From assembly GCA_903918755.1 (NCBI GenBank), contig CAIXFN010000050.1:1-44548 (forward strand): a stretch of DNA of 44,548 nucleotides, written 5' to 3'. The stretch is from an uncultured Pedosphaera sp. (GTDB lineage Bacteria > Verrucomicrobiota > Verrucomicrobiia > Limisphaerales > Pedosphaeraceae). Below the pieces are notes generated by a model that saw nothing but the letters and a program-made list of their open reading frames with translations, was not told where the DNA came from and made no database searches. The position numbers and the translations under genes are program-made. Shown one piece after another: positions 2,364-39,522 of the stretch; position 1 is the stretch's first letter; every line of letters begins with the position of its first letter.

Positions 2364-2467
2364 CAGGGAAGAGGAGGTGCCATCCATCTTCCTCGCCCGC
2401 CAAAACCCAAGGCGCGGAATCAGGTGTCCAGGGGCTGAACCAAAAACGGTCACAAAGGACCGCTCCC

Positions 2468-2532
2468 CAACACCAAAGGTGTTGTGCCATCTAGCCCATG
2501 GTTGGCGCGAGGCACGAGCGCCTACCTTGGGC
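2468..2532. repeat. Two consecutive hairpins forming a structured intergenic element
   Basis: A perfect 7-bp hairpin (CAACACC-AAA-GGTGTTG, 2468-2484) is followed by a 15-bp imperfect stem (GCCCATGGTTGGCGC at 2494-2508 and GCGCCTACCTTGGGC at 2518-2532) with a 9-base loop. It may be a dispersed repeat or a transcribed structured RNA. There is no U-run typical of an intrinsic terminator directly after the second hairpin. Confidence 0.5.
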
Positions 2533-2636
2533 ACCCATCAATAAATTTCCCCAACCTATGTGAAGGAGGTTGTGGCCAACTTGTCCTAATACTGAAATAA
2601 AATGTGCCAATGTCGTCGCCAGCTTCCTGAATAGCA

Positions 2637-14339: not shown

Positions 14340-17300
14340 ATGCGGTTCATTAAAAGTTTTGCTTGGCTGGTGGTCGCGATGGCGTGGGCGACCGGAACTC
14401 TCACGGCGGGGTCGTATAACTGGACGGGAGCCGTCTCGACTGACTGGTCCAATCCCGGCAACTGGAGCCCCAATGGGAATCCTGGGGCGGCTGACACCGT
14501 CAATTTTTCCACCGGCACCATCAATTTCACCGCCCCAACTTCGTTTGGCGGACAGTTCAACTGGTCAGGCGGGGCCCTAACCGGGAATCCACTGACCCTC
14601 GCAGCTGGCGCGGCCATGAATGTGACGGGGTTTGTGGGATTGAACAATGTGCTGACCAACGCCGGGACGGTGACCGTCTCGGGCAGCGGCCGTGTGCAGG
14701 TGGTCAATAATAGTGCGAATTTCCGTGGCGGAATCTTCAATCTTGCCTCCGGCATCTGGGATTTTCAGAATAATCAGGATATCCTCTGCGGCTGTTACGG
14801 CGCCGAGTTTTTCAACAACTCAGGCCTGCTCCGCAAGTCGCAAGGCACCGGCCAAAGCTGGGTTAGTGTGGCGTTCACGAATTCGGGCACCGTCACCGCT
14901 TTGACCGGCGGGTTGGCCTTTCAGGCGGGCGGATTGATCAACGGGAACTATAACGCGGCCAGCAATGCGCTCGTGCTCTTTGCCAGTGGCAGTTTCCGGT
15001 ATACCCAGCCGCCCACCCTGACCGGCCCGGGCAGCCTGCAGTTTGCCGGCGGAACTCTCACCCTGGTGGACGACATCCTCCCGAATCTGAGCCATACCGG
15101 GGGAACTCTCTCGCTGGCGCCCGGTTTCCAGGGTGGCACGATCACCAACCTGGCCTTGAACGGGTCCGCCTTGAGCGGGACCAACTTTGTCAGCGGGGTG
15201 TTGACTCTGGCCAGCGGTACTTTGAACGGTCCTCTGCAGGTGCAGGCCGGGGGGGTGTTCAACTGGGGCAATGGTTTAGCCTCCGCCAGCGTCACGGTGG
15301 CCACCAATGGTGCGATCAACGTGATCGGCGGCGCGCTTGCCAGTGCGCCGGTGACCAACAACGGGGCGGTCACCGTCACCGGGGCCGGGACTTTCGGCCT
15401 GCAGAACAACAACGGCAACCTGCTTGGGGCGGTTATTAACCAGCCCAACGGGATCTGGGATTTTCAAAATAACCAAAATGTCAATTGCGGCTGCTACGGC
15501 CACGAGTTTTTCAATAATGCCGGACTGTTGCGCAAATCCGCCGGCACCGGCCAAACGGCGATCAACGTGGGTTTCACTAATTCCGGGGTCGTGACGGTGC
15601 TGGTGGGGGGGATCAGCTTTTCCGGCGGCGGCCTGGTCAACGGCGTCTTCAACGCGGCGGCGGGGGGCAATATTTCATTCACCGGGGGCAACTTTGCCTA
15701 CACCCAAGTCCCCGTGTTGAATGGCCCCGGGGTTGTGCAATCGACCGGGGGCAGCTTCACCCTGCAGGCAGACATTGTTCCCAACCTCCTGCTCAACGGG
15801 GGGACGGTGGTGCTCGCCCCGATTTTTCAGGGAGGGGCGATCACGAATCTGAGTCTGCTGGCCGGAACGTTGGCGGGTACGAATGTTGTGGCGGGAACCT
15901 TCAACTGGCAGGGCGGCCTTTTGCCAGGCAGCCTCACGGTGCAATCTGGGGCGGTTCTCAATTGGTCAGGGGGAACGGCCGGCGGCGGCCTGGGCGTGGC
16001 CAGCGGTGCCGTGGTGACGATCAGTGGATCGGTCATCGTGCAGAGCCCCCTCACTAATCAGGGCACGGTGTTCGTTTCCGGCGCCGGCAGCGTGGGCGTC
16101 AACAACAACGCGGGCGGATTCATCGGGGCCATTGTGAATGCGGCCGGCGGGGTCTGGGATTTTCAGAACAACCAAAACATCAATTGTGGTTGCTACGGTC
16201 ACGAATATTTCATCAATGCCGGTTTGCTACGCAAATCCCAAGGCACTGGTCAGACCTGGATCAACGTGGCCTGCACTAATTCTGGAACGGTCACCGTCCT
16301 TCAGGGTACGATCAATTTCCTGGGAGGCGGGCAAATCGGGGGCACCTATAACGCCGGGGCGGGCACTTCCATCCTCTTCGGGGGCGGCGCCTTCAGCTAT
16401 GCGGCGATTCCCACCATGAACGGTCCGGGCGCCCTCCAATTCACCGGCGGCACGCTGACCCTGCAATCGGATTTCATTCCCAATCTGCAATACGCCGGGG
16501 GCACCTTGGTCTTGTCACCGGCTTTTCAGGGCGGATCCATCACAAATCTGACCCTGGCTGGGGGGACCCTCGCGGGCAGTAACACCGTCACCGGCGTCCT
16601 GACGATGTCCGGGGGGACGATTAACGGACCTTTATTTGTGGCCTCCGGGGGAAGCTTAAACTGCAACGGCGGGACGTTTAATGCCCCGGTGACTGTGGCC
16701 ACCAACGGGGCGGTGAATATTACGGGCGCGATGTCCATTTACAACGCGTTCAACAACAACGGAACAGTGACGATGAGCGGCGGCGGTTCGGTCACGGTCA
16801 ACAACAATGCGGCTGGCTTCCTCGGCGCCATCAACAACCTGCCCTCCGGGTTGTGGGATCTCCAAAACAACCAGAACATTAGTTGTGCCTGTTATGGTCG
16901 CGAATTTTTCATCAACTCGGGCGTGCTCCGCAAATCCGCCGGGTCCGGGTCGTCGGGCGTCAATGTGGCGTTCACCAATGCCGGCACGGTGCTGACGCTG
17001 TCCGGGACCCTTAATTTTGGGGCGGGTGGTTTGGTGGCGGGGATTTACAATACCGGTCCGGGGGCGACCATGGCCCTGGGTTCGGGGAATTTCCTGATGC
17101 TGGCCCCGCCGGTGGTGACCGGGGCGGGGCTCACGGAATTAAGTTCCGGCAATCTCTTGATGCAGCAAGACGTTGCCCCGAACCTGCTGCTGGCCGGGGG
17201 CAATGTGTCGCTGGCACCGGGTTTCCAAAACGCCGGGATGATTACCAACCTGACGCTGAGCGGCGCCACCTTGGCCGGGACCAATCGATTGACCGGTACG

Positions 17301-20300
17301 ATGATTTGGGCGGGTGGGCAGATTGGCGGTCCCCTCACCGTGGCCAGCAACGCCGTGTTAAACCTCACGGCCGCGGGTTCCGTCATCTTGTCGGATGTGC
17401 TCACCAATCAGGGCCAGGTGCTGTGGTCGGGGAGTGCGTCGCTTTCCGTGGCCAACAACCTGGGCGTCTACCGGGGCGCCATCTACAACCAGCCGGGAGC
17501 CGTGTGGGACATGCAGGGAAACGTCACCCTCGGTTGCCCCTGCTATAATAACGAGTTCTTCATCAATGCCGGGCTGGTGCAAAAATCCTCCGGCGTCGGG
17601 ACCGCCAGTATCGGCATCGCCTTCACCAATTCCGGGTTGGTGAGCTGCCTCGCCGGCACCCTCGGTTTCAATAACGGCGGCAGCGTCGGAGGTGGTTACA
17701 CCACCGTTTCCGGAAGCGCGATTAATTGTGCGGGCGGCAACTTTACCATGGGCGCCGCGCCGGTGATCAGCGGCCCCGGCAGCACCGCGTTTACCGGCGG
17801 TAAAATCGCCTTGAACCAGGGTGTGCCGGCGAATTTCCCGCTGACGGGAGGAATCGTGACCCTGGGCGCGGCGTTTCAAAATGCGGGGGCCATCACCAAT
17901 CTGACCTTGAGCGGTTCCACCCTGGCGGGGACCAACCTGGTGACGGGAGTGATGAATTGGGCCGCCGGCGCGGTGGGGGGGCCGTTGACCATCGCCGGCG
18001 GGGGCACCCTCAATCTGTTGCAATCGGGCTCCGTCGGCCTCAATGACGTCCTCACTAATGGCGGCACGGTGAACTGGTCCGGGGCCGGTGGGTTGGTGCT
18101 GAACAACAACAACTCTGCCGGCTTGCGTGGCGGAATCGTCAACCTGGCTGGCGGATTGTGGGACATGCAGGGCAACCAGACGCTGGGCTGCGCCTGCTAC
18201 GGTTTTGAGTATTTCAACAACGCCGGCCAGTTGCGGAAATCCGCCGGCAGCGGCACCGCCACTCTCGCTCTGCAATTCAACAATACCGGTTCGGTCAATG
18301 CCCAGGTGGGCACCTTCAGTTTTTCCGGGGGCGGGTTGGTGGCGGGGAATTATTCCGCCGCCGCTGGTGCATTCATCAACCTTGCGGGCAACGGTTTCAC
18401 CATGGGACAACCCGCGGTTTTCACTGGCCCGGGATCGAGCCAATTGATCAGCGGCAGCCTGACTTTGACGCAGGATGTTCCGGCCAATTTCGCGCTGACG
18501 GGCGGAGTGGTCTTGCTTGGCCCGGCCTTCCAAAACGGTTCCATCACCAATTTCACGCTCAGCGGGGCGACGCTGAACAGCACCAACACCGTGACCGGCG
18601 TCTTCACCTGGAACGGCGGGGCGCTGACGGGCCCGCTGACCATTGCCACGAACGGGTTGCTCCAGATCGTCGGATCCACCCAGGCGACTTTGAGCGCTCC
18701 GTTGACCAACGCCGGGACCGTTACGGTGACGGGCCCAGGCAACTTGCTGCTGAACAATAATAACGCCGGTCTGCGGGGCGCCATCTACAATCTCCTGGGT
18801 GCTAACTGGCAGATTCAGACCAACCAGCTCATCAGCTGCGCTTGTTTCGGGTTCGAGCTCTTCAACAACGCCGGCACGATTCAGAAATTCCCCGGCACGG
18901 GCATGGCCACGATCGGTGTGCCGGTGATCAACTCGGGCACGATCGACGCGGAGACCGGGACGCTGGCGTTCACCGGAAATCCGGCCTACGCCCAGACCGG
19001 CGCCACCATGACCTTTGGCGTGGGACCCACCAATACCGCCTCGGGCAATGTGAGCATTAATGGCAATGTGAACTTGGACGGGATCTTGGGCATCAACCTC
19101 TTGAACGGCTACACCCCCGCCTTGAGCAATTCGTTCACGCTGGTCAATTACGGGACGCATGCCGGCGTCTTCAATAACTTGAACCTGCCGCCGGCCGGAA
19201 CGGGACGCGGGTGGCAATTGACCTATGGTTCGGGCACGATCGGTTTGCAAGTGGTGACAAATCCCGTCGCCGCCACGATGATTTCCGGCGTCGTGACGGA
19301 CAATCTGGCCCAGGGCATCACTAATTTGGTGGTATTTGTCTTCACGACCAACACCACGAGCATCTTCTTGACCGCGGTGACGGATGCGAATGGCCACTAT
19401 GCCATCAGTGTGCCGAATGGGAACTACACCGTGGGCGTGCAGGGATTGCCGGCCCGGGGCTACAATTCGGTGACCAATCAGTTTGCGACGGTTGCCGGGG
19501 CCAGCCAGGTGGTCAATTTTTCGACGAGTCCGTTTTCCGGCCAGAGTTTCACGATCAGCACCAGTGTGAATCCCCTGGGTACCGGCTCCGCGGTGGGTGG
19601 GGGAGTTTTTGCTGCCGGCAGCACCGTCACCCTCACCGCCACGCCGAACACAAATTCGCTGCCGTACATCTTTTCCAGTTGGACGGAAAACGGGGTGTTT
19701 GCGAGCCCGAGCCCCGTTTACGCCTTCCCCGCCGTGCGCAACCGCCAATTGGTGGCCAATTTCGCGCTGCCCAGCTTCCTGATCACCGCGACCAATAACC
19801 CCGCCAGCGCGGGAGCGATCACCGGGGCCGGTTCCTACTTTTACCTGGCCACCAATACCCTGACTGCCTTCCCGAATTTCGGTTATAAGTTCGGCAATTG
19901 GACCGAGGCCGGCGTTATCGTGGGCACTAATCCAGTATTGAGCACCCAGGTCCTTACCAACCACAATTTCACCGCAAATTACCTCGAAGCCAACACGACC
20001 CACGTGGTGACCACCGTGACTCAACCCCCCGGGTTGGCCACGGTGACGGGCAGTGGGACCTATACCAATGGGCAAACCGCTAATTTCAGCGCGCCCGCCA
20101 GTGTGACCAACGCGCCGTTCATTTACACCTTCCAGCAATTCACCCTGGGTGGCAGCTTCGTCAGTTCCGGAGCGGGCTTTGCGAAGAAGTTTTCCACCCT
20201 GGATCCGACTAATCTCCAATATGTGGCCGTTTACCAGGCCACCAGTATCTTGCCGCAGGTGGCGAATGTGAGCGCTAATTTCAGCAGCCCGGTACCGGCC

Positions 20301-23300
20301 ACCACCAATTTCCTGCTCACGGTGCGGTTTGACCGGGCCATGCAAACCAGTGCCACCCCGGTCTTGTTCCTCACCAATGCCGCCGCGGTCACTGGCCTGA
20401 CCTTTCCCACCAATGGCGGCTCCTGGACGACCTACAACCAGGCGAATGATACCTATGTGACGCCGCCAGTCACCATTGCGCCGGCACTGAACGGCACCAA
20501 CCAACTCTTTGTGGCGGGGGCCTTGGCGATTGGGGGCGGTGTGCTCGGAACCACCAACCCGGTCAGCTATGTGGTGGATGCCACCCCTCCGCCCGCGCCG
20601 ATCCTGAGCCTTTCGTCCTCCAATGCGAACTCGGCGATGGTGGCCTGGAATGCTTATGCCGCGCCGGGCGATCTCGCCTCCTTCCGGGTTTTTGTGCAGA
20701 CCACCAACTTTGCTTCGCTCGTCGGCTTGCCGATCTTTAACGGCCTGGGTGCGGCCAGTCGCGCGGCCAATTTTTATGGCCTGACGCTCGACACCACCTA
20801 TTTCGTGGCGGTGCAGGCGGTGGATACCGCCGGAAATACCAGTCCCTTCACCACGCCCCTGCCGGTGATCCTGCCCAGCACCGTGCCCCCGGCGGTCTCG
20901 GTCCAGCAATCCCCGTTGGGCGCCACCACGGCGGGGCTCGCCTGGAACGCTTACAATACTTCCGCTCTGTTTGGATTTGCCGGTTTCCGGGTGTATCACG
21001 CGACGACCAATTTCACCAGCGTCACCGGGCTGACCCCGGATGCAACATTGGGAACTGCGGCGCGGACTTATCAGGCCACGGGACTGGATCGTTCCCAGAC
21101 GTACTATTTCGCAGTGGTTGGCTTCAACGGCACCAACGGATTCAATCCAAATGTGACGACGGTTTCGTGGTCCGATCCGTATGCCGGCACGCTCGGCGCC
21201 AACACCACCATCGGAGGGAACACGCCCAGCGTGGTCAACATCTACCAAAACATCCAGGTCGTCAGCAACGCGACCCTCACCGTGTCCCCGGGGACCACGC
21301 TGTTGTTCGCCCCCGGTACTGGCATTACCGTGGTGCAAGGCGCCCTGGTCGCGGCGGGCACCGCCCTCAATCCAATCCTTTTCGATTCCGTCAATGACCT
21401 CCCCGGCGGTTCCCCTCTGCCCGGGGATTGGCAGGGCCTGAATCTCGGGCCGGGCGCGGGCGCCTCAGTATTGAATTTTGTCGAAATCCGTTATGGTGCG
21501 GGCCTGACGCTGGACGGCTGCTCCCCGACTGTGGGAGCGTTTACCGCGGATCTCAACACTCCCGCGGGCCTGAGCCTCGTGAACGCGGCCACCCTCACCA
21601 CGGTGGATGCGCTGCTGACTGGCAATAGCGTGGGTGCCCTGCAAACCGATAACGCGCTGCTGACCGTGCACAACTCCGTGATCCAGAACAATGACACGAA
21701 TGCCTGGGGCGCGGGTGCTTTCAACATGTTCGCCAGCGGCAACTGGTGGGGCAGCCCGTCGGCCGCCGATGTCGCGGTTACCGTGCAGGGAAAAGTGGCG
21801 TACCAGACCATCCTGAATTATGAACCGGTGTTGACCCCGGCGATTGGGGCCTCCAATGGCGTGACGCAGATCGGGACCTCCTCGGCAAATCTTCGGCTCG
21901 CCTGTCGTACCGCTGACTCGTTCCGAATCAGCGAGGACAACACGTTTGCCGGAGTCTTTTTCACCCCGTTCACCAACGCGGTGACATTCCCGTTCTCGCC
22001 GGGCGGTGGCTTCAAGCATCTCTATGCGCAATTCCGCAGCGCCACCGGCCAGACCAATACGCCCTTGGAACTGGATTTGAACTACCTCACCGGCGGCCCG
22101 ATCATCCAGTCCTTCAGTCTCGGCCAGAACCAGACGCTCCACCGGCCCCTCACCGTGACGGGTTCCGCCACTGCCGTGCTGGGGATGCAGGACATTGAGT
22201 TCTACGTGGACGGCGTGCTGCAAGGGACGAACGCGGGCGGAAGTTTTTCCCAATATTTTGATGTGCGCAATTTCGGCAATGCCATCCATCAAGTGCAATT
22301 GCTCGCCCGGGATACCATGGGCAATTTTGCCACGCTGACCGAGAACGTCATCCTCGCGGTGACCCCGCCGCTGGCGCCCACCCTCGCCACTCCGCCGTAC
22401 GACTACATCACGAACAACGCCACCCTCACCATCCTGGGCACGGCGGAGCCCAATCTCAACATTCAGATCACGGATAACGGACAGATTCTGGCATTGCTGA
22501 CCACGGACGCGGCCGGAAAATTCGGTGTCACCAACGCCACGCTCATGGAAGGTGCGAACACGCTGGTGGCGGTGGCCTCGGACAGCACCGGGACGACTCC
22601 CTCCGCTGCCCGGCATGTGACCGCGGAGACGGTTTACCCTGCCGCCCTGGTGCTGAAGACGCCGGTTTACTACCCCGCCTCGGGTTTGAATGTGAGTTGG
22701 CAGTTTGCTCCCGCGGGCAAGCAGGCGATCAATTTCAAATTATTCTGGGCCACGAATACGTTTGCGACCACGAACCAGGCCACCGGCCATTCCACGCTCC
22801 TGGGTTCAATGAATTACAACGTCCAGGCGCTGGCCGATGGCACCTACTACTTTGGGGTGGTGGGGTATGACTCCGCCGGCAACCCGAGCCCACTCTCCGC
22901 CCTGGTAGCCTCGGTTTATGATGCCACCGCCCCCGCCTTGGCCATCTCCTACGGTCATCCTTCACCGGTGGGAGTGGGGCCGCTCAGCGTCATCCTGAGT
23001 TCCAGCAAGGCCCTCGTCGCCACTCCCAACCTGACGTTGCAACCCACTGGCGCCGGATCGCCCCTGCTGCTGAATCTGACCAATGTGGCGCAGAACACCT
23101 GGCAGACAGTTTTCAATGTCACCGCCAGCACCCCGTCCGGCACGGTGAATGTGCAGGCGTCCGCCCAGGACCTGGTGGGTAATTCGTTTTCCGGGGCGCC
23201 CGCCGGACTTCCGCTCGTGGTGGACACGACGCCCCCCACCGCCAGCCTCGTGACCGTGCCCCTGGGACCGGTTCCGACTGCCGTGCCGACCAATGTGAGC

Positions 23301-26300
23301 ATCAGCCTGACGCTCAGCAAATCGGTGGGGCCGGGGACCTCACCAACGCTGTCGTTCACTCCGCCCGCCGGAACCAATATTCCGATCCAATTGGCCGGCG
23401 CTGGCAGCAATTGGAACGCTAGTCTGCCGTTGACGGCGACCATGAGCAACGGGTTTGGCCTCTTCTCCTTCACCGCCCAGGACGCGGTGGGCAATGTGGG
23501 CACCAATTTCACCGCGGGCCGGCAATTGGAGTTGTACAACACCGCGCTTCCCGCCGCTCCCGCGGCCCCCTTGAATCTGGCCGCCGCCAGCCTGCCGGGC
23601 GGCGGAGTGGGGCTGACCTGGACAGCCGTTTCCAATGCGCAAATTTACCGGCTTTACCGCCAGGCGGGAACGAACCTGACCCTGCCGGCCGCCGTTTACC
23701 TCGACAACATCACTTCCAATCATGTGACCGATTTGCCGCCGGCCGATGGTTCCTATGCTTATGGCCTGAGTGCGAGCCGGTTCGGTTCCGACAGCGCCGT
23801 GTCCAAGACAGTGGGCTTGTCGGATCGCGTGCCGCCCCCCGCGCCAACAAACGTAGCCGTGGCGCTCGCTCCCAGCGGGGTGCAGATCACCTGGCAGCAA
23901 CCTGCCGGTGAAGTGCCGGCGTCCTACCGGATTTACCGTAATGGCGTCTTGATCCAGACCACGGGAACCATCGCGCCGGTCAGCGATTATCCCCCAAAGG
24001 GGACGAACAATTACGTGGTGAGCGCGGCGGACAGCATTGGCAACGAAAATGCCAGCGTCCCGGCGGCGATCACGCTCCTGGTCAGTCCGGTGAGCCATTT
24101 GTTGGTGCAGGTGAATTACGGTCAGGCGCCGTCGATCAGTTGGGTGTCGCCGGATCCCACCGCCGTGGGCTTCAACCTGTATCGCAACGGCGTCCGGCAG
24201 AATGCCGCCCTGATTCCGGGCACGAATTATACGGATCAATTGCCGCTCAGCGACCTGACCCAATATGCCGTCACCGCCGTGAACGCGGCGCTGCAGGAGA
24301 GTCCGCCCCGCCAGGTGAATGCGTATCCGGTGGCCTTCAGTTTGCAGGCCAATCCCGCCAATGGGCAGGCGAACAATCCCCTGTATGTAAACTACTTTGA
24401 TAAGTTTGTCCTGGGGTTGACGAATCGTGCCAGCGGCAGTCCCTTGCCGGTCGCGCAGATCCAGTTCAACCGCACCATCGTCGGGCTCGATCCGTTGGGC
24501 CTCACCCAGACGGTGAATTCCGCCGTGGCGCCGGGCTCCAACTTCCAGTCGGTCGTGGTCTTTCCGGAAGCCTCCGCTCCCGCCGCCGAAAGCCTTTTGG
24601 TCACCGTCAGCCAGCAGACTGACAGTGGCGGCAGCGAGGTGCTTTATCTGGATAACTTCAATCTCCCCGCCGCCCAATTGCCGGCCACCGAAATCGCGGT
24701 GTCCGTCAATCAACTGCCCCTCGCGGGCGGCCTGACCCCCTTCCAGGTCCAGGTGTATAATCGCGGCTTTACGGAGATGCAGTTCATCGTCGCCCGCGGT
24801 GGTGGCGGTCTTCCTGGCGATCTTTACGTTTCCGTGGAGAACAGCCTGGGGCAGGAACTCAGTCGCACGCCGTTCCTGGGGATTCCGCCCGGCACCACTT
24901 TTCTCGCGGATGGACGGGCGTTTGTGAAAATCGCGGCCGGTGCCTCCCTCTCCTTCACGGTGCCCAATGTGCTCTCCCCGGCGGCCCTCGCCGGCGCCAC
25001 CAATGTGATTTATGCCGTGGGGATCAGCAACATTTACTACAACTTCAACCACGCCGACCAGGTGATTTCCGGTCCGCTGGCGGGCTCCATGGTGTCCTCC
25101 AGCCTCGCCCTGGCTCCTTACTACGCCCTGGCGCAGACGGACAAGACGAACTACGCCAACAATGAAGCGGTGGTCATCACTGGCCAGGCGCTGGATACCG
25201 TCACGGGTTTGCCGGTACCCAACAAGCCGGTGAACATCGGCTTTGCCACCCGGGGCTTCAAATGGTACCACCCCGTAACCACGGATGGGGCGGGAAACTT
25301 CCAATACACCTACATGCCCGCCGCCGGATTTGGTGGCACCCTCGCAATTTGGGGCGCGCATCCGCTGGTGGTGGACCGGTTGAACCAGAATCAAATCGTC
25401 GTTTACCGCTTGTATGCCAATCCGTCCGGCGGCGATATCCAGATGTCCAAGAACGACACCTTCAAATTCTCCATCGGCTTGATCAACCCCGGCGATACCC
25501 CGCTGACCGGGTTCGTCACCACGTTCAATGCTTATCAATTCTCCGGAACGAACCAGACCCCGGTTGCGTCGGTGACCGGGACCAATCTGACCGGACCGGG
25601 CTTTACTGTGGGACCCGGCCAGACCCAGACCGTGAATCTGGAGTTGTCGGCCGCGCTGAATGCGCCGAATTCCCTGGGGGTGGATTTTACCTTCACCTCG
25701 CTCGAAGGGGCCGCCGCCACCTTCCATGGCAATCTCACCCTCCTGCCGGCCCTGCCGGTGCTTGCGGTGGTGAATCCGCCGTCCGGCTATTTGCAGGTGA
25801 ATGTGAACCGGGGCAATCAGAAAAGCGGGCAGGTGACCATTGCCAACAACGGCCTGCGGGACCTGCAGGGCGTCACCCTGCAACAGCCCACGAATGAAAA
25901 CTGGATTCGGGTGAATCTGCCGACATCGGCGGATGGCAAAATTCATCTGCCCGATCTCGCGGTGGGCCAATCCAACACATTTACGGTGGTCTTCAGTCCG
26001 CCGACCAATACCGCGCTGGGATTTGCGCCGGATGGCATCGTCATTCAGGGCACCAATGCCGCGGCGCCCTTCACGATCGGGGTTTATGGCCTGGTGACTT
26101 CGGATCTCACCGGGGGCATGCAATTTTTCGTGGACGATACCCTCGGCGCTCCGGTGCCCAATGCGGGCGTGCGGTTGCATAACAACGCGCTGCAGTTGGA
26201 TCTTCCTCCATTCTACACGGATACCAACGGGTTGGTGACGATCACGAACATGCAGGAGGGGAGTTGGAATTGGCAGGCCAGCGCGCCCGGTTGTTCCCCC

Positions 26301-27506: not shown

Positions 27507-30500
27507 ACCATTTTTTGAAAACAACTGATATGAGCAGGTCCCGGAAGTGGTTAGAGGCCGTGCGCTGGCTTGCGGTAATCGCCCTGCTGGGCTCCGCGCT
27601 GCCCGGTGGGGAAGTGCGCGCGCAGCAACAGCAACAGGGGCTCTGTGCGGAAATCAAGATGGTGATCAACCAACGGTTGACCCTGGAGCGGACCGGATTT
27701 CTGGCCACCTTGACGATCACGGACAATGATCCCACTGATCCCATCACCGATTTCGGGGCGAACTTGACGTTCGAGAACTCGCTGCTCTCCACCAACGGAA
27801 CGGTGAACGATTCGTCGGGCAAGTTCTTCGTACAACCGCCGACCTTGCAGGGCATCTCGGATGTGGCCGGCACTGGCATTATCTCCCCGGGACAAACGGC
27901 CACCATCAGTTGGTTTATCATCCCAGCGACGAATGCCGGCGGGATGACGCCCAACGGCATCGTTTACCAGGTCGGAGCAGCGCTGAGCGGCAAGATTCGT
28001 GGCAATGCCATCCCCGCTGCGACCCTGCAGGTGTTCCCGGCGTCCATCACGGTGCAACCCGATGCCCTGCTGCGCATCACCTACTTCACCCCGCGGGATG
28101 TCACCGGCGACAATCCGTTCACTCCCCAGGTGGAAAGCCCCATCCCGTTCACCTTTGGCGTGCTCGTTCAAAACGTCGGTTATGGCCTGGCGCACAATAT
28201 GATCATTGCGTCGCAGCAGCCCAAGATCACGGAAAACAAACTAAACCTGCTTATCGTCGCTCAATTGCTTGGCTCGCGGATCAACGATTCCCCGCTGTCC
28301 GCGGCCAATTTGACGGTGAACTTGGGGGATCTTCAACCGGGCCAGGCCACCAAGGGAGCCTGGGACATGATCACCAGCCTGTCCGGCACCTTTTTGGAGG
28401 TCAGCGCCAATTACACCCACTCCAGCGCCTTGGGGGGAGCCGAAACTTCCCTCATCCAATCCGTGTCCGCGTACCTTTTTCTCCATGAGGTGCTGAACGA
28501 CCAGGCCGGCCGCGACAATGTGAAGGATTTTCTGGCCGATACGAGCGGGGCAGTGGATGCCATCGGGAACCTGATACCGGATTCAATTTATGAAAGTCAG
28601 GGCAATATCCTACCCGTCAACCTTTTGACCAATGTGGCGGTGGTGGGCGGCGGCGCTTCCTGCCAGGTGAATGTAGCGGCCAATTTCCAGGGTTGGGGAT
28701 ACATCCGGGTCCCAGACCCCGGCCAGGCCAAATTGCCCATCGGCAGCGTGGTGCGCTCGGACGGCAAGGTCCTCAATCCCAACAATTATTGGAGCAACGT
28801 CCATTTCGAACCCATCAACAATCTCGAGCACGATTATCTCAATATTCTCGATTTGGTTGACATTGGAAATTATTCCTACTCGGTGACCTACACCAATATC
28901 CCGGGTGATGTTACGCCGCCGGTGACGACCCTTTCCTTTGCGGGTTCCGTCAGCCACACCAATGGGGCGTATTATGTCACTCCCGAGACCCAAATTTACT
29001 TTCTGGCCGCGGATGCCAGCCCCGTGAGCATCTTCTATAGCCTGAATGGCGGCCCGACCTTGCCCGCCTATCCGTTCAGCTTGACCACCCCGGGTAGTTA
29101 TCAAATCACCTATTTTGCCATTGATACCGCCAGCAACCAGGAAACGAATCATACGGCCACCATTGTGGTGCCCGGCTCCCACACGCTGGGCTTTGCCCAG
29201 TCCGCCATACCGGGAGCCCCGCTGTTTGTTTCGGGGGGCGCGGCCTCGGTCCGGCCCACGGTGACCCCCATCAGTTTTACCGCCTTGCCCGACCCCACTC
29301 CCGTCAACGCGCGGATCGAAGTCTTTCAAGGTGCCGTCGGTTGGGCCGTGCTCAGCCAGGTGCCGTCTTCGCCGACCGCCGCCACCACCGCATCGCTGGC
29401 CGTGGGCGGTGTCAACGTGGACTTTTACCAGTATCGCCTGAATGGCGGCGCCTGGAGTGCGGAGGCGACGGTGGGCACGCCCCTCGCGCTCTCCGGGCTC
29501 GCTCCGGGGACAAATGTCCTGGCCGTGCTCGGGCGTTCGCAGTTCGGTGCTTATCCCAACCCCACGAATGCCGTGACGGTCGGTTGGTTCGTCGATCCCG
29601 CCGCCCCGCCAACGGTCATCACCGGCACCCCGGCGACGCCGAGTCGGTTGGATAGCGCGCAACTCGCCATCAGCGGCTCAGGTGTGACCAGTTATTCCTG
29701 GACCACGAATCTCAGTTTCTTCCGCGCGCCCGCTCCCGTCGCCACGCCGCTGATCCTGAGCAATCTGCCCAATGGATCACTCGTGGTGGATATCCTGGGA
29801 ACCGCCGGTGGGGTGACGCAGGCTACCAACCATCCGACGACCGTTGCCTGGACCGTCAATCCCCTCTACGGTTTTGATCAGGGTAACCTGCCTTTGGTCC
29901 GCAGCGCGGCCTTCACCAACGTCGGCACCCAGCCCGTCACGTTTGGCTGGGATGGCCGCAATGGGGCCGGGGTGATTCAGCCGCCTGGTGTTTACACGGT
30001 CCGCATCACCCTCACGGATGCCCTGGGTTATACCAATTTTGTGGTCGGCCTGGCGCAGATCAGTTCGCTTGCGGGCACGAATGTGCTCCTGGCGGATGTG
30101 TCCCGCGGTCCCCTCAATCCCCACGCCCGCGGCCGCTGGGCGGTCTGGCAGGACCAGAGCAGCGGGCACAATGAAATCTACGCCCGGGATGTGACTGTCA
30201 CCAACGGCGCCATCATCAAAGTGAGCAACTCCACCTTCAGCCAGCAGAACCCGCGGACCGATGGTCGCTATGTGGTGTGGCAGGGGCGCCAGGCCAATGC
30301 GAGTTGGGATGTTTACATCGCCGATCTCGAAGGCACGAATGGTCCGGTGGCGGTGACCAGCACGCCGACCCAGGATGAGACCGCCCCGGCGTTGGATTGG
30401 CCCTGGGTGGTTTATCAAAGCCGTCCCGCAGGCAACCCCACGGCACCCTGGCAACTCTTCGCCCGCAATGTGCTGGATGACCGCCATTTCTTCATCTCCC

Positions 30501-31528
30501 CCTCGGTGGCGGATCAGGTCACTGCCGATGTGCAGGCCCGCCGCGTGGTTTGGCAGGATTTCCGCGATGTTGGCCCCGGGGAGATTTACCTGGCGGACTT
30601 GGAGACGGCGGCGGTGCGCCGGATTTCCACGAACTTGTTTGGCCAGTATCATCCCGTCATCCAGGGCAATTGGATTGTCTGGCAGGACAATCGGAACACC
30701 CAGAACGACCTCTACGGCTTCGACCTGCTGCGCAATCGTGAAGTGCGCCTCACCAGCACCCCGGAGGATGAAACCCAGCCCTTCATTGACGGCGATTGGG
30801 TGGTTTGCCTCGAGAATTCCCTGGGCGCCAATTCGCCCAACGCCCGTTTGGTGCATCTCCCCAGTTTGCTGGCCGTTCCGGTAACCCGCACCTCGGCCAT
30901 GAAGACCGCGCCCGTTTTGGCGAATGGGCTGGCCCTCTGGCAGGAGGGATCCGGGGGCGCCAACAGCATCACCGGGATCGTCCTGCCCGCCCTTCAGGGG
31001 GTCTTCCAGAATCGCAATCTCGTGGCGATCACTCCGGCCATGGTCAGTTATGTTCAGAACGCCTTCGGCTTGCTGACCAGTTGGGCCTCCAATGGGGTCA
31101 CTGAAATCACGGTTTACACCGCGCTTTCGCCCACGGTGGCCAGCCAGACCGCCAAACTGGTCAATGGAACGCCCACGGGCGCCAATTTCAGCCTGACCGC
31201 CGGCGGCTTTCTCTGGGTCCAGTTTGGCGGACGTCAGGTCCTCGACTTGGGCGCGGATCCCGGGGCGCCGGTCAACCTCGTCGCGGGCGACAATGTGGTC
31301 AGCTATACCCGGTTCCCGAATGGTTACGACGCCTACCAGTTGCTCCGGCAATTGGGTCTCGGTAATGCTCCCGTGGTCCGGATGTTGGACGCGGGGAACG
31401 GCCGGTGGCGGGTGGCCGAGGCGCCGGGGGGCGTCCTGGCGGGCGACAACTTCCCCATTCCGAACGTGGCCGTGCTCCTGATCAATCTGGCCAACCCGGT
31501 GAACCAGTTCCTTCCCCAAACCCAGTAG
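27503..31528 (+). CDS. Large exported protein with OmpL47-like, FlgD-like and TolB-type propeller parts
   Basis: 1,341 residues from GTG at 27503, which overlaps the giant gene's TGA in a GTGA arrangement and has AGGGGG about 7 bases upstream. ATG at 27530 has no ribosome site but gives a neater signal peptide (WLAVIALLGSALPGGEVRAQ). Seen in order: beta-rich domains with conserved-repeat (DUF11-like) style to about 460; an OmpL47-like beta domain (about 470-556, IFYSLNGGP and YFAIDTASNQE); further Ig-like parts; a FlgD-like Ig domain (about 815-853, WDGRNGAG then PGVYTVRI); and a six-blade TolB-like propeller (about 872-1126, with blade cores WAVWQD, YVVWQG, WVVYQS, RVVWQD, WIVWQD and WVVCLE). 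It is likely a surface or periplasmic partner of the giant protein. Confidence 0.9.
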   Translation: MNHFLKTTDMSRSRKWLEAVRWLAVIALLGSALPGGEVRAQQQQQGLCAEIKMVINQRLTLERTGFLATLTITDNDPTDPITDFGANLTFENSLLSTNGTVNDSSGKFFVQPPTLQGISDVAGTGIISPGQTATISWFIIPATNAGGMTPNGIVYQVGAALSGKIRGNAIPAATLQVFPASITVQPDALLRITYFTPRDVTGDNPFTPQVESPIPFTFGVLVQNVGYGLAHNMIIASQQPKITENKLNLLIVAQLLGSRINDSPLSAANLTVNLGDLQPGQATKGAWDMITSLSGTFLEVSANYTHSSALGGAETSLIQSVSAYLFLHEVLNDQAGRDNVKDFLADTSGAVDAIGNLIPDSIYESQGNILPVNLLTNVAVVGGGASCQVNVAANFQGWGYIRVPDPGQAKLPIGSVVRSDGKVLNPNNYWSNVHFEPINNLEHDYLNILDLVDIGNYSYSVTYTNIPGDVTPPVTTLSFAGSVSHTNGAYYVTPETQIYFLAADASPVSIFYSLNGGPTLPAYPFSLTTPGSYQITYFAIDTASNQETNHTATIVVPGSHTLGFAQSAIPGAPLFVSGGAASVRPTVTPISFTALPDPTPVNARIEVFQGAVGWAVLSQVPSSPTAATTASLAVGGVNVDFYQYRLNGGAWSAEATVGTPLALSGLAPGTNVLAVLGRSQFGAYPNPTNAVTVGWFVDPAAPPTVITGTPATPSRLDSAQLAISGSGVTSYSWTTNLSFFRAPAPVATPLILSNLPNGSLVVDILGTAGGVTQATNHPTTVAWTVNPLYGFDQGNLPLVRSAAFTNVGTQPVTFGWDGRNGAGVIQPPGVYTVRITLTDALGYTNFVVGLAQISSLAGTNVLLADVSRGPLNPHARGRWAVWQDQSSGHNEIYARDVTVTNGAIIKVSNSTFSQQNPRTDGRYVVWQGRQANASWDVYIADLEGTNGPVAVTSTPTQDETAPALDWPWVVYQSRPAGNPTAPWQLFARNVLDDRHFFISPSVADQVTADVQARRVVWQDFRDVGPGEIYLADLETAAVRRISTNLFGQYHPVIQGNWIVWQDNRNTQNDLYGFDLLRNREVRLTSTPEDETQPFIDGDWVVCLENSLGANSPNARLVHLPSLLAVPVTRTSAMKTAPVLANGLALWQEGSGGANSITGIVLPALQGVFQNRNLVAITPAMVSYVQNAFGLLTSWASNGVTEITVYTALSPTVASQTAKLVNGTPTGANFSLTAGGFLWVQFGGRQVLDLGADPGAPVNLVAGDNVVSYTRFPNGYDAYQLLRQLGLGNAPVVRMLDAGNGRWRVAEAPGGVLAGDNFPIPNVAVLLINLANPVNQFLPQTQ

Positions 31529-31539
31529 GACGAACAATT

Positions 31540-32403
31540 ATGTTTGGTAAATATTATCCATGGATCGGCCGGGCCGGGCTCACGGCACTGTTCGCGGCGG
31601 TTGGCTTGCATGCCGGGGCGATGACGGTCGCCCAATTGCGGGACCAGTTGGCGCAATCGACCGCTTTAACCGTGATTGACGTGCGCTTGCCCGGGGTTTA
31701 CGCGGAAGGTCACATTCCTGGGGCCATCAATGTGCCCGCTTCCTTGTTGCCCTACCAAAACCTGCCGCCTTTCAGCCACGTGGTCGTCTGCGGGGCCGGT
31801 GTCGGGCGGGATGCCCTCGAAGATGTGGTGGCCGCCCTGGCTCGTAAACCGGGCTGCCAGGTGGAGGTTTTGGAAGGGGGCTATGCGGCCTGGTCCAGTG
31901 CTTTGGGTGCCAACACCCGCGGCCGCGGATTGCATGCCGAGGTCCACCACTACCTGACCTATGCCGACCTGCAAAAGGCCAAGGCGGGGGATACCGTCCT
32001 CCTCGATTTGCGGAAGGCCCCCGCGCCGGTGCCCGCAGGGCGTCTGGCCGGCGCCAACGCCGCCGCCCACACGCCGTTGACGGATTTGGCGACCACTTTC
32101 CCCGGGTTGCCCGTCGTGAAGACGGTGCCGTCCGAGTCGGGTCGGGCCAATTCCGCTCTCGCGACCACCGGCAGCGCGCCCTTGTTGGTGCTGATCGATA
32201 ACGCCGACGGCACGGCGGAAGCCATGGGACGGAATTTGCTCGCGGGCGGCAACCGCCGTTACGCCATCCTGCTCGGAGGGGAAGAGATCCTGGCCCGCGG
32301 CGGTCAGGCCGGCTTGCAACGCAAGAGCAACCTCAAGGTGGTTCCCGCTCCCAAAAACGCGGCTCCGGGGCTTGCCCCCACCGCCAACGTGTCCAACCAA
32401 TGA
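31540..32403 (+). CDS. Exported tandem-rhodanese protein with one active-site Cys
   Basis: 287 residues from the ATG at 31540 (AGGA 10 bases upstream; 11-base gap after the propeller gene). The N-terminus IGRAGLTALFAAVGLHAGA is a probable signal peptide, so the enzyme should act outside the cytoplasm. The first rhodanese domain (about 30-120) shows VIDVRLPGVYAEGHIPGAI, then the active-site loop VVVCGAGVGRDA (Cys84) and VLEGGYAAW. The second domain (about 138-262) shows VLLDLRKA and PAGRLAGANA, but where the active-site Cys belongs the sequence is VLIDNADGTAEA (Asp220), so this half is probably inactive. Rhodaneses move sulfane sulfur to a thiol or cyanide. An exported one in an operon with a Cys-motif surface protein may serve thiol or persulfide chemistry there; that is inference. 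Confidence 0.85.
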   Translation: MFGKYYPWIGRAGLTALFAAVGLHAGAMTVAQLRDQLAQSTALTVIDVRLPGVYAEGHIPGAINVPASLLPYQNLPPFSHVVVCGAGVGRDALEDVVAALARKPGCQVEVLEGGYAAWSSALGANTRGRGLHAEVHHYLTYADLQKAKAGDTVLLDLRKAPAPVPAGRLAGANAAAHTPLTDLATTFPGLPVVKTVPSESGRANSALATTGSAPLLVLIDNADGTAEAMGRNLLAGGNRRYAILLGGEEILARGGQAGLQRKSNLKVVPAPKNAAPGLAPTANVSNQ

Positions 32404-32409
32404 ACCGCC

Positions 32410-34074
32410 ATGAGCTCCGCATTCTTTGATTTGAAAACTTCCTTCCGCAACTGCGGCCGCCACCTCCGGGTGCTGCTGGCTCTGGCTGGTCTCCTCCTTT
32501 TCCCCCGCCTGGGTTCCGCTCTGAACATCACCAACGTCACCGCGGTCAACGTCACCCCCAGCGGATTTTCCGTGGTCTGGCGTGGACCATTGAACGGTAC
32601 CCCGGCGCTTTCCGTTTTTGCCGATGCGGCCGGGACGGTGAATCTTGCCGGCCAGTTGGGGATCGAACTTTACCCGGTGCATTCGGGGGATCCCACCCTC
32701 ACCAATGGTTATGCCCATTTGCAAAACCTCGACCAATTGACGAAGAAAATCATGGCCCAAAGTACGGTTTACGTGCGCGTGACGGGCTGCGCTCCGGGAA
32801 CCAAGTACTTTTACCGCGCGGAGCTCCGCGATGCCACCGGCCAGCCGATCGCCGTTTCCCCCGCCACCGGACCGCTGCCCGCGGTGACCACGGCGCTCGA
32901 GAATTCGTTCGTTCTGCAATCACGGCAATTATTGATCACCCTGCCGGGGGGAAATCCCACCGGCAGTCTCGTTCTGCTCTCCAATCCGAACACCCCCAGC
33001 GTGCTGGCTGGCGTGGTGGGGGATGGGGCGGGTCCCAACCAGGTGTTTTTCAATCTCGATGATGTGTTGGCGGCGGGCGGGGCCACCAATTACCTGCCCC
33101 TGGGCGGGCTCACTTTCACCGCCTCCGTATTGGGTACTTCCACCAACGGGTTGTCCCAGGCTTACGGTCTCGTCTTCACCGGCAGCTTCCTCGTGGGACA
33201 ATCGTCCGGTTTTAATCTGGGTACCTTTCTTGGGTTGAGCGTCGGCTCTGCCGTGGTCCGTTCGGGTGCCTCCGGCAGTCTGCCGATTCTCCTGAACGCC
33301 AGCACCGCGATTACGAATGTGTCCGTCCTGCTCCAGGTGGACACCAATCATTTCACGAGCCTGAGTCTGCAGGGTTTGGTGCCGCAATTGGGCCCCCCCA
33401 CCTTCCAGTCGGTTGCTTCCAACTTGTTCCTGCTCAAATTCCCGGCCGCCTCCGGCCAGAACCTCCTGGGGAACCAGGCCATCGCGCAAATCAACTTCAC
33501 CGCCGCCTCGAACCAGCCCTCCGCGTTTGTTCCCTTCACGCCCGGTTCCCTGCAGGGCCTGAATGTGGATGGCTCACCGGCCCTCTCGCTGGGATTGGGT
33601 GGCGGCCGGGTGGTGATCATTGACAATCAACCGCTCCTGGAAGCCACGCAGGCGGCCGATGGTTCCCGCAACCTCACCTTGTTTGGCAAGGACGGCGCCA
33701 GTTACCAGGTGCAATTCTCCACCAACCTGCTGGACTCCGCGGCTTGGACGGATCAGGCCATCGTCGCCCTGTCCGGCATGACCCAGGATCTACCCGGGCA
33801 GGACACCACGCCGCCGGAGGTCTACTTTCGCGCCTATGAATTCACGCCCTCCTCCGGAATGCTGAAGTTGCAGGCGGCTCCGGATGGGCGGGTCTCGGCC
33901 ACGGCTTTCGGCCGGCCGGGGGCCCGCTACACGCTGGAATACGCCACCAGCCCCGCCGCCGGGGCCCACTGGCTCCCGCTGGTGAGCTACACTTTGACCA
34001 ATTCCTTCACGACCGTGGCGAATCTCGGCAAAACCAATTCCGGCCTGTTCTTCCGGTTGCAGAACGCGAATTGA
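32410..34074 (+). CDS. Exported protein with FN3-like and cohesin-like domains
   Basis: 554 residues. The start ATG lies six bases after the rhodanese stop. The signal peptide is in the first 38 residues (LRVLLALAGLLLFPRLGSA). Residues about 40-165 are an FN3-like domain (NVTAVNVTPSGFSVVWRG, then APGTKYFYRAEL). Residues about 278-401 resemble a cohesin fold (SGSLPILLNASTAITNVSVL, LFLLKFPAASGQNLLG, AIAQINFTA). The last 150 residues carry two strands of the ASYQVQFSTNLLDSAAW type and end in SGLFFRLQNAN, the usual verrucomicrobial C-terminal pattern. A cohesin would bind a dockerin, but none is visible in this window. It is last in the four-gene set and ends before a perfect hairpin at 34107-34138. 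Confidence 0.85.
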   Translation: MSSAFFDLKTSFRNCGRHLRVLLALAGLLLFPRLGSALNITNVTAVNVTPSGFSVVWRGPLNGTPALSVFADAAGTVNLAGQLGIELYPVHSGDPTLTNGYAHLQNLDQLTKKIMAQSTVYVRVTGCAPGTKYFYRAELRDATGQPIAVSPATGPLPAVTTALENSFVLQSRQLLITLPGGNPTGSLVLLSNPNTPSVLAGVVGDGAGPNQVFFNLDDVLAAGGATNYLPLGGLTFTASVLGTSTNGLSQAYGLVFTGSFLVGQSSGFNLGTFLGLSVGSAVVRSGASGSLPILLNASTAITNVSVLLQVDTNHFTSLSLQGLVPQLGPPTFQSVASNLFLLKFPAASGQNLLGNQAIAQINFTAASNQPSAFVPFTPGSLQGLNVDGSPALSLGLGGGRVVIIDNQPLLEATQAADGSRNLTLFGKDGASYQVQFSTNLLDSAAWTDQAIVALSGMTQDLPGQDTTPPEVYFRAYEFTPSSGMLKLQAAPDGRVSATAFGRPGARYTLEYATSPAAGAHWLPLVSYTLTNSFTTVANLGKTNSGLFFRLQNAN

Positions 34075-38022: not shown

Positions 38023-39522
38023 TCAGCCGGGCAGCACCCGGGGAGCATCCTTTTCCGGGCCACCTCGACCCAACTCGTCACGGTTCAAAGTGACGCCAAA
38101 ACCAACCAGACCCGCAAAATTGATCAAATCGCTGCTGAAGGAGCCGAATACGGTCAGGAAGAAAATCAGCCGGGCGATGAATATGGCTAGCAGGAAGGTG
38201 TTCACCCGCAGCAGCGCGGGATCCCCGTAGCGGTAATTTTTATAGAGCACCTGCAGCGAAGCCACGCTGAACCAGGCAAAACCGAAAACCCCGAAGATGC
38301 CAAAGGGAATGATCAGGGAGAATGGCCCGCTGTGGTAATCCCCATTCAATCGGGCAAATTCGGCGGCTTTGCCAAATCCCCGCAATTCCGATTGCCAGAC
38401 CATGAACATGTCGTTCGGGTCCACCGCGTAGCCTTTGCCGAGAAAAAGGTATTTGGGTACCTCGGGCAGCAACTCCCGCCACATGTCCAATCGCCATTCG
38501 GTCGAGGCATCCGCACTCGCCTGGGCGATGGGATCCACTTCCACCGGCAGAAAACTCAGGGTGCGTTGGACCGAAAGGGGGAAATGCCGGACGAACGGCA
38601 TCGTGATGGCCAATCCCAAGATTCCGGCGAGCACGATTATCGCCACCAGTCGGGTGCGCAACAAACCTTCCCAATAAAACAGCGCGCCCAGAATGAGCGC
38701 ATACATGACCAGGACCGACCGAAAGCCGGCAAAAAGGCTGCCGAGAATGGCCAGGAGCAGCAGGGTCGCCCGCCAGGGATGGTGGATATCCAGTACTCCG
38801 CGGAGGCCGTAACGCATGAGCAGGAAACAAAATAGCCCCATGGTGGCAAAATTGATGCTGCCGAATCGCGTCACCGCTTCCGACGCCCCGTCACCCTCCG
38901 TTTCAAAACTCTCGGGCAGGATCGCGTGCAGAAAATCCATGCTGGGACCGCCTAAATCCCCCAACAGCCCGGGGAAAATCAGCAGACCGGAGAGGTAAAA
39001 GAGGGCAACATACATTCCCACACGGTGGCGCGGCATTCGCTGCCCCACCATGGCAAAATAACCCAGCACCCCCATGAAGAGGAGCAGGTACTTGCGACCG
39101 CCGAAGGAAGCGGAACCAAGCGCCCGGACCCCAACCCCGCCCGTCAGGACAGCGGTGATCACGATGACGGCAGTCAGAAAAACCAGCGAACGGCTTACCG
39201 AACGGGAGCCAAAGAAATCCACCTTGCGTCCCACGGTCCGGTCCATCAGCGAAAACGTCAGGCTGATCCCGACCATGACGACCCCGAGCGACAATCGGCC
39301 AGGCAGGAGTGAGAAGAAAATTGGCGCGTTCCAACTGAAAATCAGCAGGGGATAATGCCACCGCATCAGGAGCGGGACACTCAGCACGGAAAGCACCAGG
39401 ATGACCACCGAGAGGCTGTCCGACTCAAACGGGGTGGCGAGGAAATAGCCAACGAGTACGGCGAGTGGCAAGCACACGCCGTACATCAAGTGGGATCGTG
39501 AGATCGCAAACGACTCAGCCAT
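38023..39522 (-). CDS. O-antigen ligase/polymerase-like membrane protein (copy 1)
   Basis: 499 residues, same architecture as the next gene downstream. Parallel segments: YGVCLPLAVLVGYFLA, LTGGVGVRALGSASFGG, SVQRTLSFLPVEVD, EWRLDMWRELLPEVPKYLF, GKGYAVDPNDM and NGDYHSGPFSLIIPFG. The conservation of the large periplasmic loop in both copies suggests both are active, while transmembrane parts have drifted, which points to an old duplication. GGAG lies close to the ATG (spacing three bases). The C-terminal tail is shorter and more charged than in the paralog. It probably forms a transcription unit with the second copy. Confidence 0.8.
   Translation of the reverse strand: MAESFAISRSHLMYGVCLPLAVLVGYFLATPFESDSLSVVILVLSVLSVPLLMRWHYPLLIFSWNAPIFFSLLPGRLSLGVVMVGISLTFSLMDRTVGRKVDFFGSRSVSRSLVFLTAVIVITAVLTGGVGVRALGSASFGGRKYLLLFMGVLGYFAMVGQRMPRHRVGMYVALFYLSGLLIFPGLLGDLGGPSMDFLHAILPESFETEGDGASEAVTRFGSINFATMGLFCFLLMRYGLRGVLDIHHPWRATLLLLAILGSLFAGFRSVLVMYALILGALFYWEGLLRTRLVAIIVLAGILGLAITMPFVRHFPLSVQRTLSFLPVEVDPIAQASADASTEWRLDMWRELLPEVPKYLFLGKGYAVDPNDMFMVWQSELRGFGKAAEFARLNGDYHSGPFSLIIPFGIFGVFGFAWFSVASLQVLYKNYRYGDPALLRVNTFLLAIFIARLIFFLTVFGSFSSDLINFAGLVGFGVTLNRDELGRGGPEKDAPRVLPG

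What the first reader, a model, noticed from the sequence alone, without database searches (positions are those of the whole stretch)
14340..34074. Four-gene exported 'giant Hint - propeller - rhodanese - cohesin' operon
Four exported proteins are packed with a GTGA overlap, an 11-base gap and a 6-base gap, so they are almost certainly co-expressed. The mix is unusual: a giant Cys-motif repeat protein with a terminal Hint domain, a TolB-type propeller protein, an extracytoplasmic rhodanese and a cohesin-like protein. A working model is a surface assembly that is autoprocessed (Hint), thiol-modified (rhodanese) and held by protein-protein modules (propeller, cohesin-like). I know of no named system with this order.
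Basis: partly seen in the sequence, partly recalled or inferred. Interest (0 to 1): 0.8.

Follow-up and report, generated by a model that had tools for sequence, protein, structure and literature searches.

The report
Four-gene giant surface protein operon
A fixed set of four exported proteins, built around a giant, probably self-trimming surface protein, is inherited as one block by scattered Verrucomicrobiota; it looks like a multi-protein surface assembly whose main modules other members of the group make as one single giant protein.

Summary
In detail: giant (14340-27506), propeller protein (27503-31528), rhodanese-fold protein (31540-32403) and cohesin-fold protein (32410-34074) form one block. 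In 320 genomes of the order, propeller and rhodanese-fold proteins occur in the same 20. All 23 loci with the first three genes on one contig keep their order; 20 have the fourth next. The block also occurs in other classes of the phylum.

The interpretation needs correcting. The rhodanese looks dead (catalytic Cys in 3 of 27). The Hint keeps Cys1 and the block-B His in 25 of 25 but never has the terminal Asn: self-cleavage rather than splicing. The 'Cys-motif' repeats were found in no other giant. The cohesin fold is supported, but the genome shows no dockerin.

New: relatives encode the giant's C-terminal part and the propeller protein's N-module (P2N) in one chain, without a Hint where read; the break lies at the Hint. 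P2N's only conserved cysteine must there pair outside P2N, so in the operon it may link giant and propeller protein. A subtilase lies beside the operon in 12 of 26 genomes (0.5 expected), but one carrier has none.

Best reading: a self-trimmed, cysteine-joined surface adhesin complex; chemistry, location and secretion route are inferred.

The parts
14340..27506 (+). P1: giant exported protein, 4388 aa; N-terminal repeats (aa 1-~1735), conserved chassis (~1735-4235), conserved Cys 4138/4166/4209, Hint domain ~4239-4372
   Evidence: translation; Pfam; orthologs; cysteines; Hint profile
14340..19541 (+). P1 variable N-terminus (aa 1-1734) with seven repeats holding a C.C[YF] motif; in several other loci it holds FG-GAP, LamG-type and C-type lectin domains
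27054..27455 (+). Hint domain, aa 4239-4372 (Cys1 = Cys4240; block-B His; ends V-H-E-G-C)
27503..31528 (+). P2: exported protein 1341 aa; N-terminal P2N module (~aa 41-480, 71% mean column identity over 15 rows) with the single conserved Cys48, C-terminal beta-propeller
31540..32403 (+). P3: exported tandem rhodanese-fold protein, 287 aa; catalytic Cys missing in 24 of 27 orthologs
32410..34074 (+). P4: exported protein 554 aa with a cohesin-fold domain (~aa 273-404) and a C-terminal part shared with fused giants

Best explanation
The locus encodes one extracellular adhesin-type assembly made of separate chains. P1 is the adhesin: a variable, lectin-like or repeat-built head on a conserved chassis of about 2.6 thousand residues. 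After export its terminal Hint domain cuts itself off at Cys4240 by an N-S acyl shift (Hedgehog/BIL-like, no splicing), leaving a new C-terminus just behind a cluster of three conserved cysteines. P2 docks there through its very conserved P2N module; its only conserved cysteine (Cys48) pairs with one of P1's. This rebuilds the P1C-cysteines-P2N arrangement that relatives make as one chain. P4 (cohesin fold, whose C-terminal part also follows P2N in single-chain relatives) and the probably dead rhodanese-fold P3 are further structural subunits. In about half of the genomes a secreted subtilase gene stands next door and may process one of them. Shown: gene order, co-inheritance, folds of Hint, rhodanese and cohesin, residue patterns, fused counterparts, subtilase linkage. 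Inferred: surface location, Hint cleavage, the P1-P2 disulfide, any substrate of the subtilase, the adhesive role.
For: P2 and P3 in the same 20 of 320 genomes. P1-P2-P3 order in 23 of 23 loci, P4 next in 20. ATGA/GTGA overlap of P1 and P2 possible in 20 of 25 junctions; Shine-Dalgarno-like motif in the last codons of P1 in 17 of 24 (not in the window, which has GGGGG). Pairwise distances of the four proteins correlate, r 0.80-0.96. Hint Cys1 and block-B His in 25 of 25 (Thr of TxxH 23, Ser 2), terminal Asn in 0 of 25. Conserved Cys in P1's last 2,750 residues: 4138 (23 of 23), 4166 (21), 4209 (22), 4240 (23), 4372 (23) and 2522 (19); P2 has one, Cys48 (23 of 24). In 12 of 12 fused genes examined P2N has exactly that one Cys, with 2-12 Cys in the 200 residues before it. 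P4's C-terminal part follows P2N in 3 of 4 fused giants read in full. Subtilase within 6 kb of the operon in 12 of 26 genomes, 0.5 expected within 7 kb; one type in 9 of 20 carriers and 1 of 300 non-carriers. Lectin or FG-GAP domains in 6 of 9 giant N-termini scanned.
Against: No experiment. No secretion machinery sits in the block, so surface location is unproved. Asp at the Hint's end (20 of 25) is allowed in some inteins (PMC7664689, passages read), so C-side chemistry is not excluded. The subtilase is not obligatory: it is beside the operon in 12 of 14 genomes of the first set (picked when 10 were already known) but in 0 of 12 of the second, many of these with short contigs, and G453 has the operon and no subtilase at E <= 1e-10; the window's own lies on another contig. 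In G001 P4 lies upstream of P1, and in L062 and G578 P4 is not clearly present behind P3. The structure models of P2N (pLDDT 54) and P4 (58) are weak overall. Conserved Cys could bind metal or stay reduced. Shared ancestry alone gives correlated distances; no species-tree control was run.
Confidence: 0.5

Rival explanations
1. Hedgehog-like anchoring: the Hint thioester is resolved by an external nucleophile (a lipid, or an amine of peptidoglycan or of a partner), so the giant is covalently tethered to the envelope through its new C-terminus.
For: Conserved Cys1 and block-B His with loss of the terminal Asn is the Hedgehog pattern; the profile also matches Hedgehog Hint (E 2e-4); a Gly-rich linker precedes Cys1 in many loci.
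Against: No acceptor-binding domain follows the Hint: a tail of 16-36 residues in 24 of 25 loci, whose end in many loci is explained by the P2 ribosome-binding site.
Confidence: 0.2
2. The Hint is a vestige: the four proteins work together, but no autocleavage occurs in vivo.
For: The terminal Asn is lost in 25 of 25; fused relatives show no Hint where read.
Against: Cys1, block-B His and the +2 Cys are kept in 25 of 25 loci over several classes of the phylum, which a dead domain would not be expected to show.
Confidence: 0.15
3. Polymorphic-toxin locus in which the Hint releases a C-terminal toxin and the downstream genes are immunity or accessory proteins.
For: Hint before a toxin is the classic architecture (PMC3482391, passages read); PT-HINT is a weak Pfam hit.
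Against: The ORF ends 16-36 residues after the Hint in 24 of 25 loci, and in the last, G099, runs on into P2; the downstream genes are constant and carry signal-like N-termini.
Confidence: 0.03
4. One reading: rhodanese-driven thiol or persulfide modification of the surface assembly.
For: P3 is rhodanese-fold and P1/P2 have conserved cysteines; the window's own P3 has a Cys at the active position.
Against: Cys at that position in 3 of 27; the others have Tyr, Phe or Val, and the loop lacks CxxGxR (the CxxGxR consensus is recalled).
Confidence: 0.05

Closest known systems
Bacterial intein-like (BIL) and Hedgehog (Hog) Hint domains
   Same: Hint fold, catalytic Cys1, block-B His; in those families cleavage rather than clean splicing (PMC7664689 and PMC5874633, passages read)
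   Different: Sits at the very C-terminus of a giant adhesin-like protein with no C-extein and no sterol-recognition region; terminal Asn never seen (0 of 25); Cys at +2 in 25 of 25
Single-chain giant proteins of the same order (e.g. G000:C46, 5107 aa)
   Same: P1C, then P2N, then (3 of 4 read in full) the P4 C-terminal part in one chain
   Different: A stretch with 2-12 Cys and no Hint motif before P2N; no match to P3 or to P2's propeller half in the four read in full; P2N of the two forms lie on two sides of a 100/100 branch
Cellulosomal cohesins
   Same: P4 middle domain has the cohesin fold
   Different: No dockerin match in the window's genome; cohesin-like part also fused into giants
Polymorphic toxin systems
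   Same: Large secreted proteins with a C-terminal Hint
   Different: No toxin domain after the Hint

Membership tests
Hint superfamily | Hint fold by profile | tested here: met
   A1 profile vs PDB, E 5e-17 to 8e-16
Hint superfamily | N-terminal Cys1 and block-B His | tested here: met
   25 of 25 loci (in alignment A1 one row starts after Cys1)
Splicing intein | Terminal Asn (or Gln/Asp) plus +1 Cys/Ser/Thr and a C-extein | tested here: not met
   Asp 20, Glu 3, Gln 1, His 1, Asn 0 of 25; +1 Ser/Thr in 7 of 25, Cys in none; tail of 16-36 residues in 24 of 25
BIL domain | Lacks the +1 nucleophile and gives cleaved products | tested here: inconclusive
   +1 Cys/Ser/Thr absent in 18 of 25; products not testable here
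Hedgehog/Hog | Sterol recognition region after Hint and cholesterol transfer | tested here: not met
   No domain after the Hint; transfer itself not testable
Polymorphic toxin | Variable C-terminal toxin after Hint | tested here: not met
Active rhodanese (sulfurtransferase) | Catalytic Cys in the active-site loop | tested here: not met
   Cys in 3 of 27 (window, G007, G011), loop not of the active form
Cohesin | Cohesin fold | tested here: met
   Foldseek: top hits cohesins, TM on target up to 0.82; domain pLDDT mostly 75-90; sequence profile alone only E 0.12
Cohesin-dockerin system | Dockerin partner in the genome | tested here: not met
   PF00404: 0 matches in the window's genome at E <= 0.001; control rang in 2 of 14 known genomes
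TolB | TolB equivalog score | tested here: not met
   TIGR02800 14.4 bits vs cut-off 343

The most novel reading that the evidence does not exclude
The Hint is a trans-ligase. Its thioester at the P1 C-terminus is captured by Cys48 of P2, made N-terminal by trimming of the QQQQQG leader (perhaps by a subtilase where one is present), so that P1 and P2 are joined by a peptide bond into one chain with the module order of the single-chain relatives. The Cys at +2 would act as a redox latch on Cys1 until the right time. This would be natural two-gene protein ligation outside the cytoplasm. (Lowered from 0.09 after one search showed a carrier without any subtilase.)
Probability: 0.07. Interest if true: 0.88.

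Novelty: new variant of a known kind. Interest (0 to 1): 0.62.

Why it matters
Giant genes of Verrucomicrobiota mostly lack an assigned function (recalled, not searched). A fixed four-gene block with single-chain counterparts and a probably self-cleaving terminus gives a first testable set of parts: which chain binds which, at which cysteine, and where the giant is cut. It also offers a bacterial, Hedgehog-like Hint in a setting without toxins.

Tried and rejected
Rejected: splicing intein, polymorphic toxin, active rhodanese, TolB proper, dockerin-mediated assembly (see the membership table). The recurring C-terminal tail of P1 ([KT]EV[VA]) looked like a sorting motif but is explained by a Shine-Dalgarno-like sequence for P2 (17 of 24). 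P1 and P2 in one ORF in G099 looked like a natural fusion, but P2's signal peptide is still inside, so I do not use it. The P-domain subtilase beside G018, G088, G047 and G199 belongs to a group common in the order (132 of 225 genomes at E <= 1e-40), so only its position is informative. Two structure predictions had shallow alignments (5 and 3 rows) and are weak outside the cohesin domain; the P2N model was not searched. P2N has no PDB relative at E <= 1. Promoter and terminator scans found nothing at either end.
Full report
What is there. The window is a whole contig (C50) of a 7.19-Mb draft genome. A contig of a same-genus genome has the length of a 'Pedosphaera sp.' record (G001:C714, 47,380 bases, CAIYZC010000714.1) and another in the order that of a 'Limisphaerales bacterium' record (G264:C507, 26,579 bases, PLZQ01000298.1), so the order is probably Limisphaerales, Verrucomicrobiota (inference). 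The four genes are as described, with a GTGA overlap, an 11-base gap and a 6-base gap. Each starts with a signal-peptide-like sequence (inspection; no predictor was run).

Is the block real? In 320 genomes of the order, the C-terminal 941 aa of P2 match in 20. P3 matches at E < 1e-40 in the same 20; two further weak hits (G001 at 7e-8, G105 at 5e-7) cover one rhodanese domain only. P1's segment from about aa 2300 on matches at 44% identity or more in those 20 (in G104, G200 and G252 as fragments) and in G109 (a 718-aa fragment at a contig end; neither P2 nor P3 found there). Searches scored only the two best candidates per genome. I read 27 loci: 21 in the order including the window (G200 in two fragments; G201 has two), the named record L062, and five from elsewhere in the phylum. 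Four are cut by contig ends (G252, G104, G072, G200). In the other 23, P1-P2-P3 stand in this order on one strand in 23 of 23 (in G099 P1 and P2 are one open frame). P4 follows P3 in 20 of these (G438 only weakly, 50 bits). The exceptions are G001 (P4 upstream of P1), L062 (a partial match 0.6 kb on) and G578 (an unmatched 529-aa ORF in the place of P4). In a draw of 386 other genomes of the phylum 6 have P2 (2 in the same class, 4 in other classes); five were read, and in the sixth, G639, P3 was found by similarity. P1 and P2 can overlap by four bases in 20 of 25 junctions, and 17 of 24 P1 genes carry a Shine-Dalgarno-like motif in their last codons (the window has GGGGG instead). That fits translational coupling. 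Pairwise distances of the four proteins correlate (r 0.80-0.96), without a species-tree control.

Single-chain relatives. P2's N-terminal module (P2N) matches at about 31-41% inside open frames of up to 5,610 aa in many genomes. In four read in full (G000:C46, G002, G031, G003), P1's C-terminal chassis (about 3590-4130) precedes P2N, and in three of four P4's C-terminal part follows. A motif scan finds no Hint in 12 distinct fused genes as far as they were fetched; six of them are whole, the others include the stretch before P2N. On a tree of P2N, 23 operon rows and 12 fused rows are the two sides of a 100/100 branch (two partial duplicate rows dropped, and matches under 330 columns not used). 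So the operon is a separate lineage, and the break between P1 and P2 lies where the Hint sits. By 'Rosetta stone' reasoning P1, P2 and P4 are expected to touch.

The Hint. The profile of 25 rows matches PDB Hint domains (8w20 E 5e-17; BIL 2lwy 8e-16; Hedgehog 6tyy 2e-4). Cys1 and the block-B His are kept in 25 of 25, with Thr (23) or Ser (2) three residues before the His. The last residue is Asp 20, Glu 3, Gln 1, His 1, Asn 0; Ser or Thr at +1 occurs in 7 of 25; Cys at +2 in 25 of 25. A tail of 16-36 residues follows in 24 of 25; in G099 the frame runs on into P2. [quoted passage not shown] it also lists Asp among terminal residues of inteins, so C-side cleavage is not excluded. I infer N-side self-cleavage. 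Because the two ends of a Hint fold are adjacent (recalled), Cys1 and Cys(+2) could form a latch disulfide; an intramolecular disulfide on a catalytic intein Cys is reported in PMC6195587 (abstract read). That part is speculation.

Cysteines at the joint. In P1's last 2,750 residues the columns with Cys in at least 80% of 23 rows are 2522 (19), 4138 (23), 4166 (21), 4209 (22), 4240 = Cys1 (23) and 4372 (23); P2 has one, Cys48, in 23 of 24 rows. In 12 of 12 fused genes P2N has exactly one Cys, at that place, and 2-12 Cys in the 200 residues before it (16 rows, four genes twice). If it is bonded, its partner in the fused form must lie outside P2N, most likely just upstream; in the operon form that stretch is P1's pre-Hint cluster. 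Hence the predicted P1-P2 disulfide. Metal binding or free thiols are not excluded.

The other parts. P3 is a rhodanese fold (PDB 1yt8 E 4e-21) with a second, similar half, but the catalytic Cys is present in 3 of 27 (window, G007, G011). P4's middle domain is cohesin-like: profile E 0.12 and 0.73 to cohesins, and a model whose best PDB matches are cohesins with TM up to 0.82 on the target. No dockerin match in the window's genome. P1's N-terminus varies: FG-GAP, LamG-type and C-type lectin domains in G269, G018, G047, G199 and G088; FG-GAP in G011; Ig-type, DUF642 or other small domains in G007 and G015; no family in G001 (nine giants scanned in part). The window's C.C[YF] repeats (7) were not found in 15 other giants by a C[GA]C[YF] scan of what their contigs hold. 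This supports an adhesin with an exchangeable head.

A frequent neighbour. Subtilases (PF00082) number 0-19 in the 26 genomes with the operon that I examined. One lies within 6 kb of the operon in 12 of 26 (9 of these 12 within 500 bases of open frame), against 0.5 expected within 7 kb (related genomes are not independent). The split matters: 12 of 14 in the first set, which I picked after one search had shown 10 cases, and 0 of 12 in the second. In the second set G011, G072, G104, G200 and G252 have short or cut contigs, but G438 (nearest 22 kb away), G578, G099 and G639 have none near, and G453 has no subtilase at all at E <= 1e-10. In the first set the exceptions are the window's genome and G015 (whose contig starts 270 bases before the giant's frame). 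One type without P-domain occurs at E <= 1e-60 in 10 of 320 genomes, 9 of them operon carriers; the window's genome has it on contig C22 (Fisher p 2e-11, optimistic because genomes are related). In G201:C99 it directly follows P4, and in G369 and G478 its open frame overlaps P4's. The P-domain type is common (132 of 225). So the subtilase is linked, not obligatory; a processing role is inferred.

Literature. Searches for Verrucomicrobia with giant and Hint (no paper), with giant protein, cohesin, dockerin or adhesin and for Limisphaerales or Pedosphaera with giant and adhesion listed no title that describes this block; only listings were seen, apart from passages of PMC3482391, and the library is open-licence PMC.

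Verdict. A real, co-inherited, exported system built from known folds, for which I found no description. Most likely a self-trimmed, cysteine-joined adhesin complex (0.5). The bold alternative, Hint-driven ligation of P1 to P2, is not excluded (0.07, lowered) and has a simple mass-spectrometric test.

Noticed in passing
G018, G088, G047, G199, G268, G269, G001, G007, G264, G201:C99, G369, G478: Subtilase gene within 6 kb of the operon; three kinds (no P-domain, with P-domain, and frames of about 1.8 thousand residues).
   Followed up: yes
L109:1860-4073 (-); G478:C126:46825-49077 (-): A protein with an FGE-sulfatase domain and TSP3 repeat stands behind the subtilase in G369; a similar ORF is in G478.
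   Followed up: partly
L062 (JARGFW010000097.1): Operon on a contig filed under Deferrisomatales; transfer between phyla or a misbinned contig.
   Followed up: partly
L078, L079 (G201:C124 and G201:C99): One genome holds two diverged copies of the operon.
   Followed up: no
L032:2683-18003 (G000:C46): A 5107-aa single-chain relative in the window's own genome.
   Followed up: yes
window:36391-37926 and 38023-39522 (-): Two neighbouring paralogs, 41% identical; the first matches O-antigen ligase Wzy_C.
   Followed up: no
window:6734-9907 (-): A PLAT-domain protein next to a protein with a Peptidase_S74 (endosialidase chaperone) domain.
   Followed up: no
window:11774-13941 (-): S1/P1-type nuclease gene and a metallo-beta-lactamase-fold gene just upstream of the giant.
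   Followed up: no
G202:C212, G204:C143, G250:C268, G237:C81: ORFs of about 755-821 aa matching only the Hint part of P1 (33-37% identity): related terminal Hints in smaller proteins.
   Followed up: no
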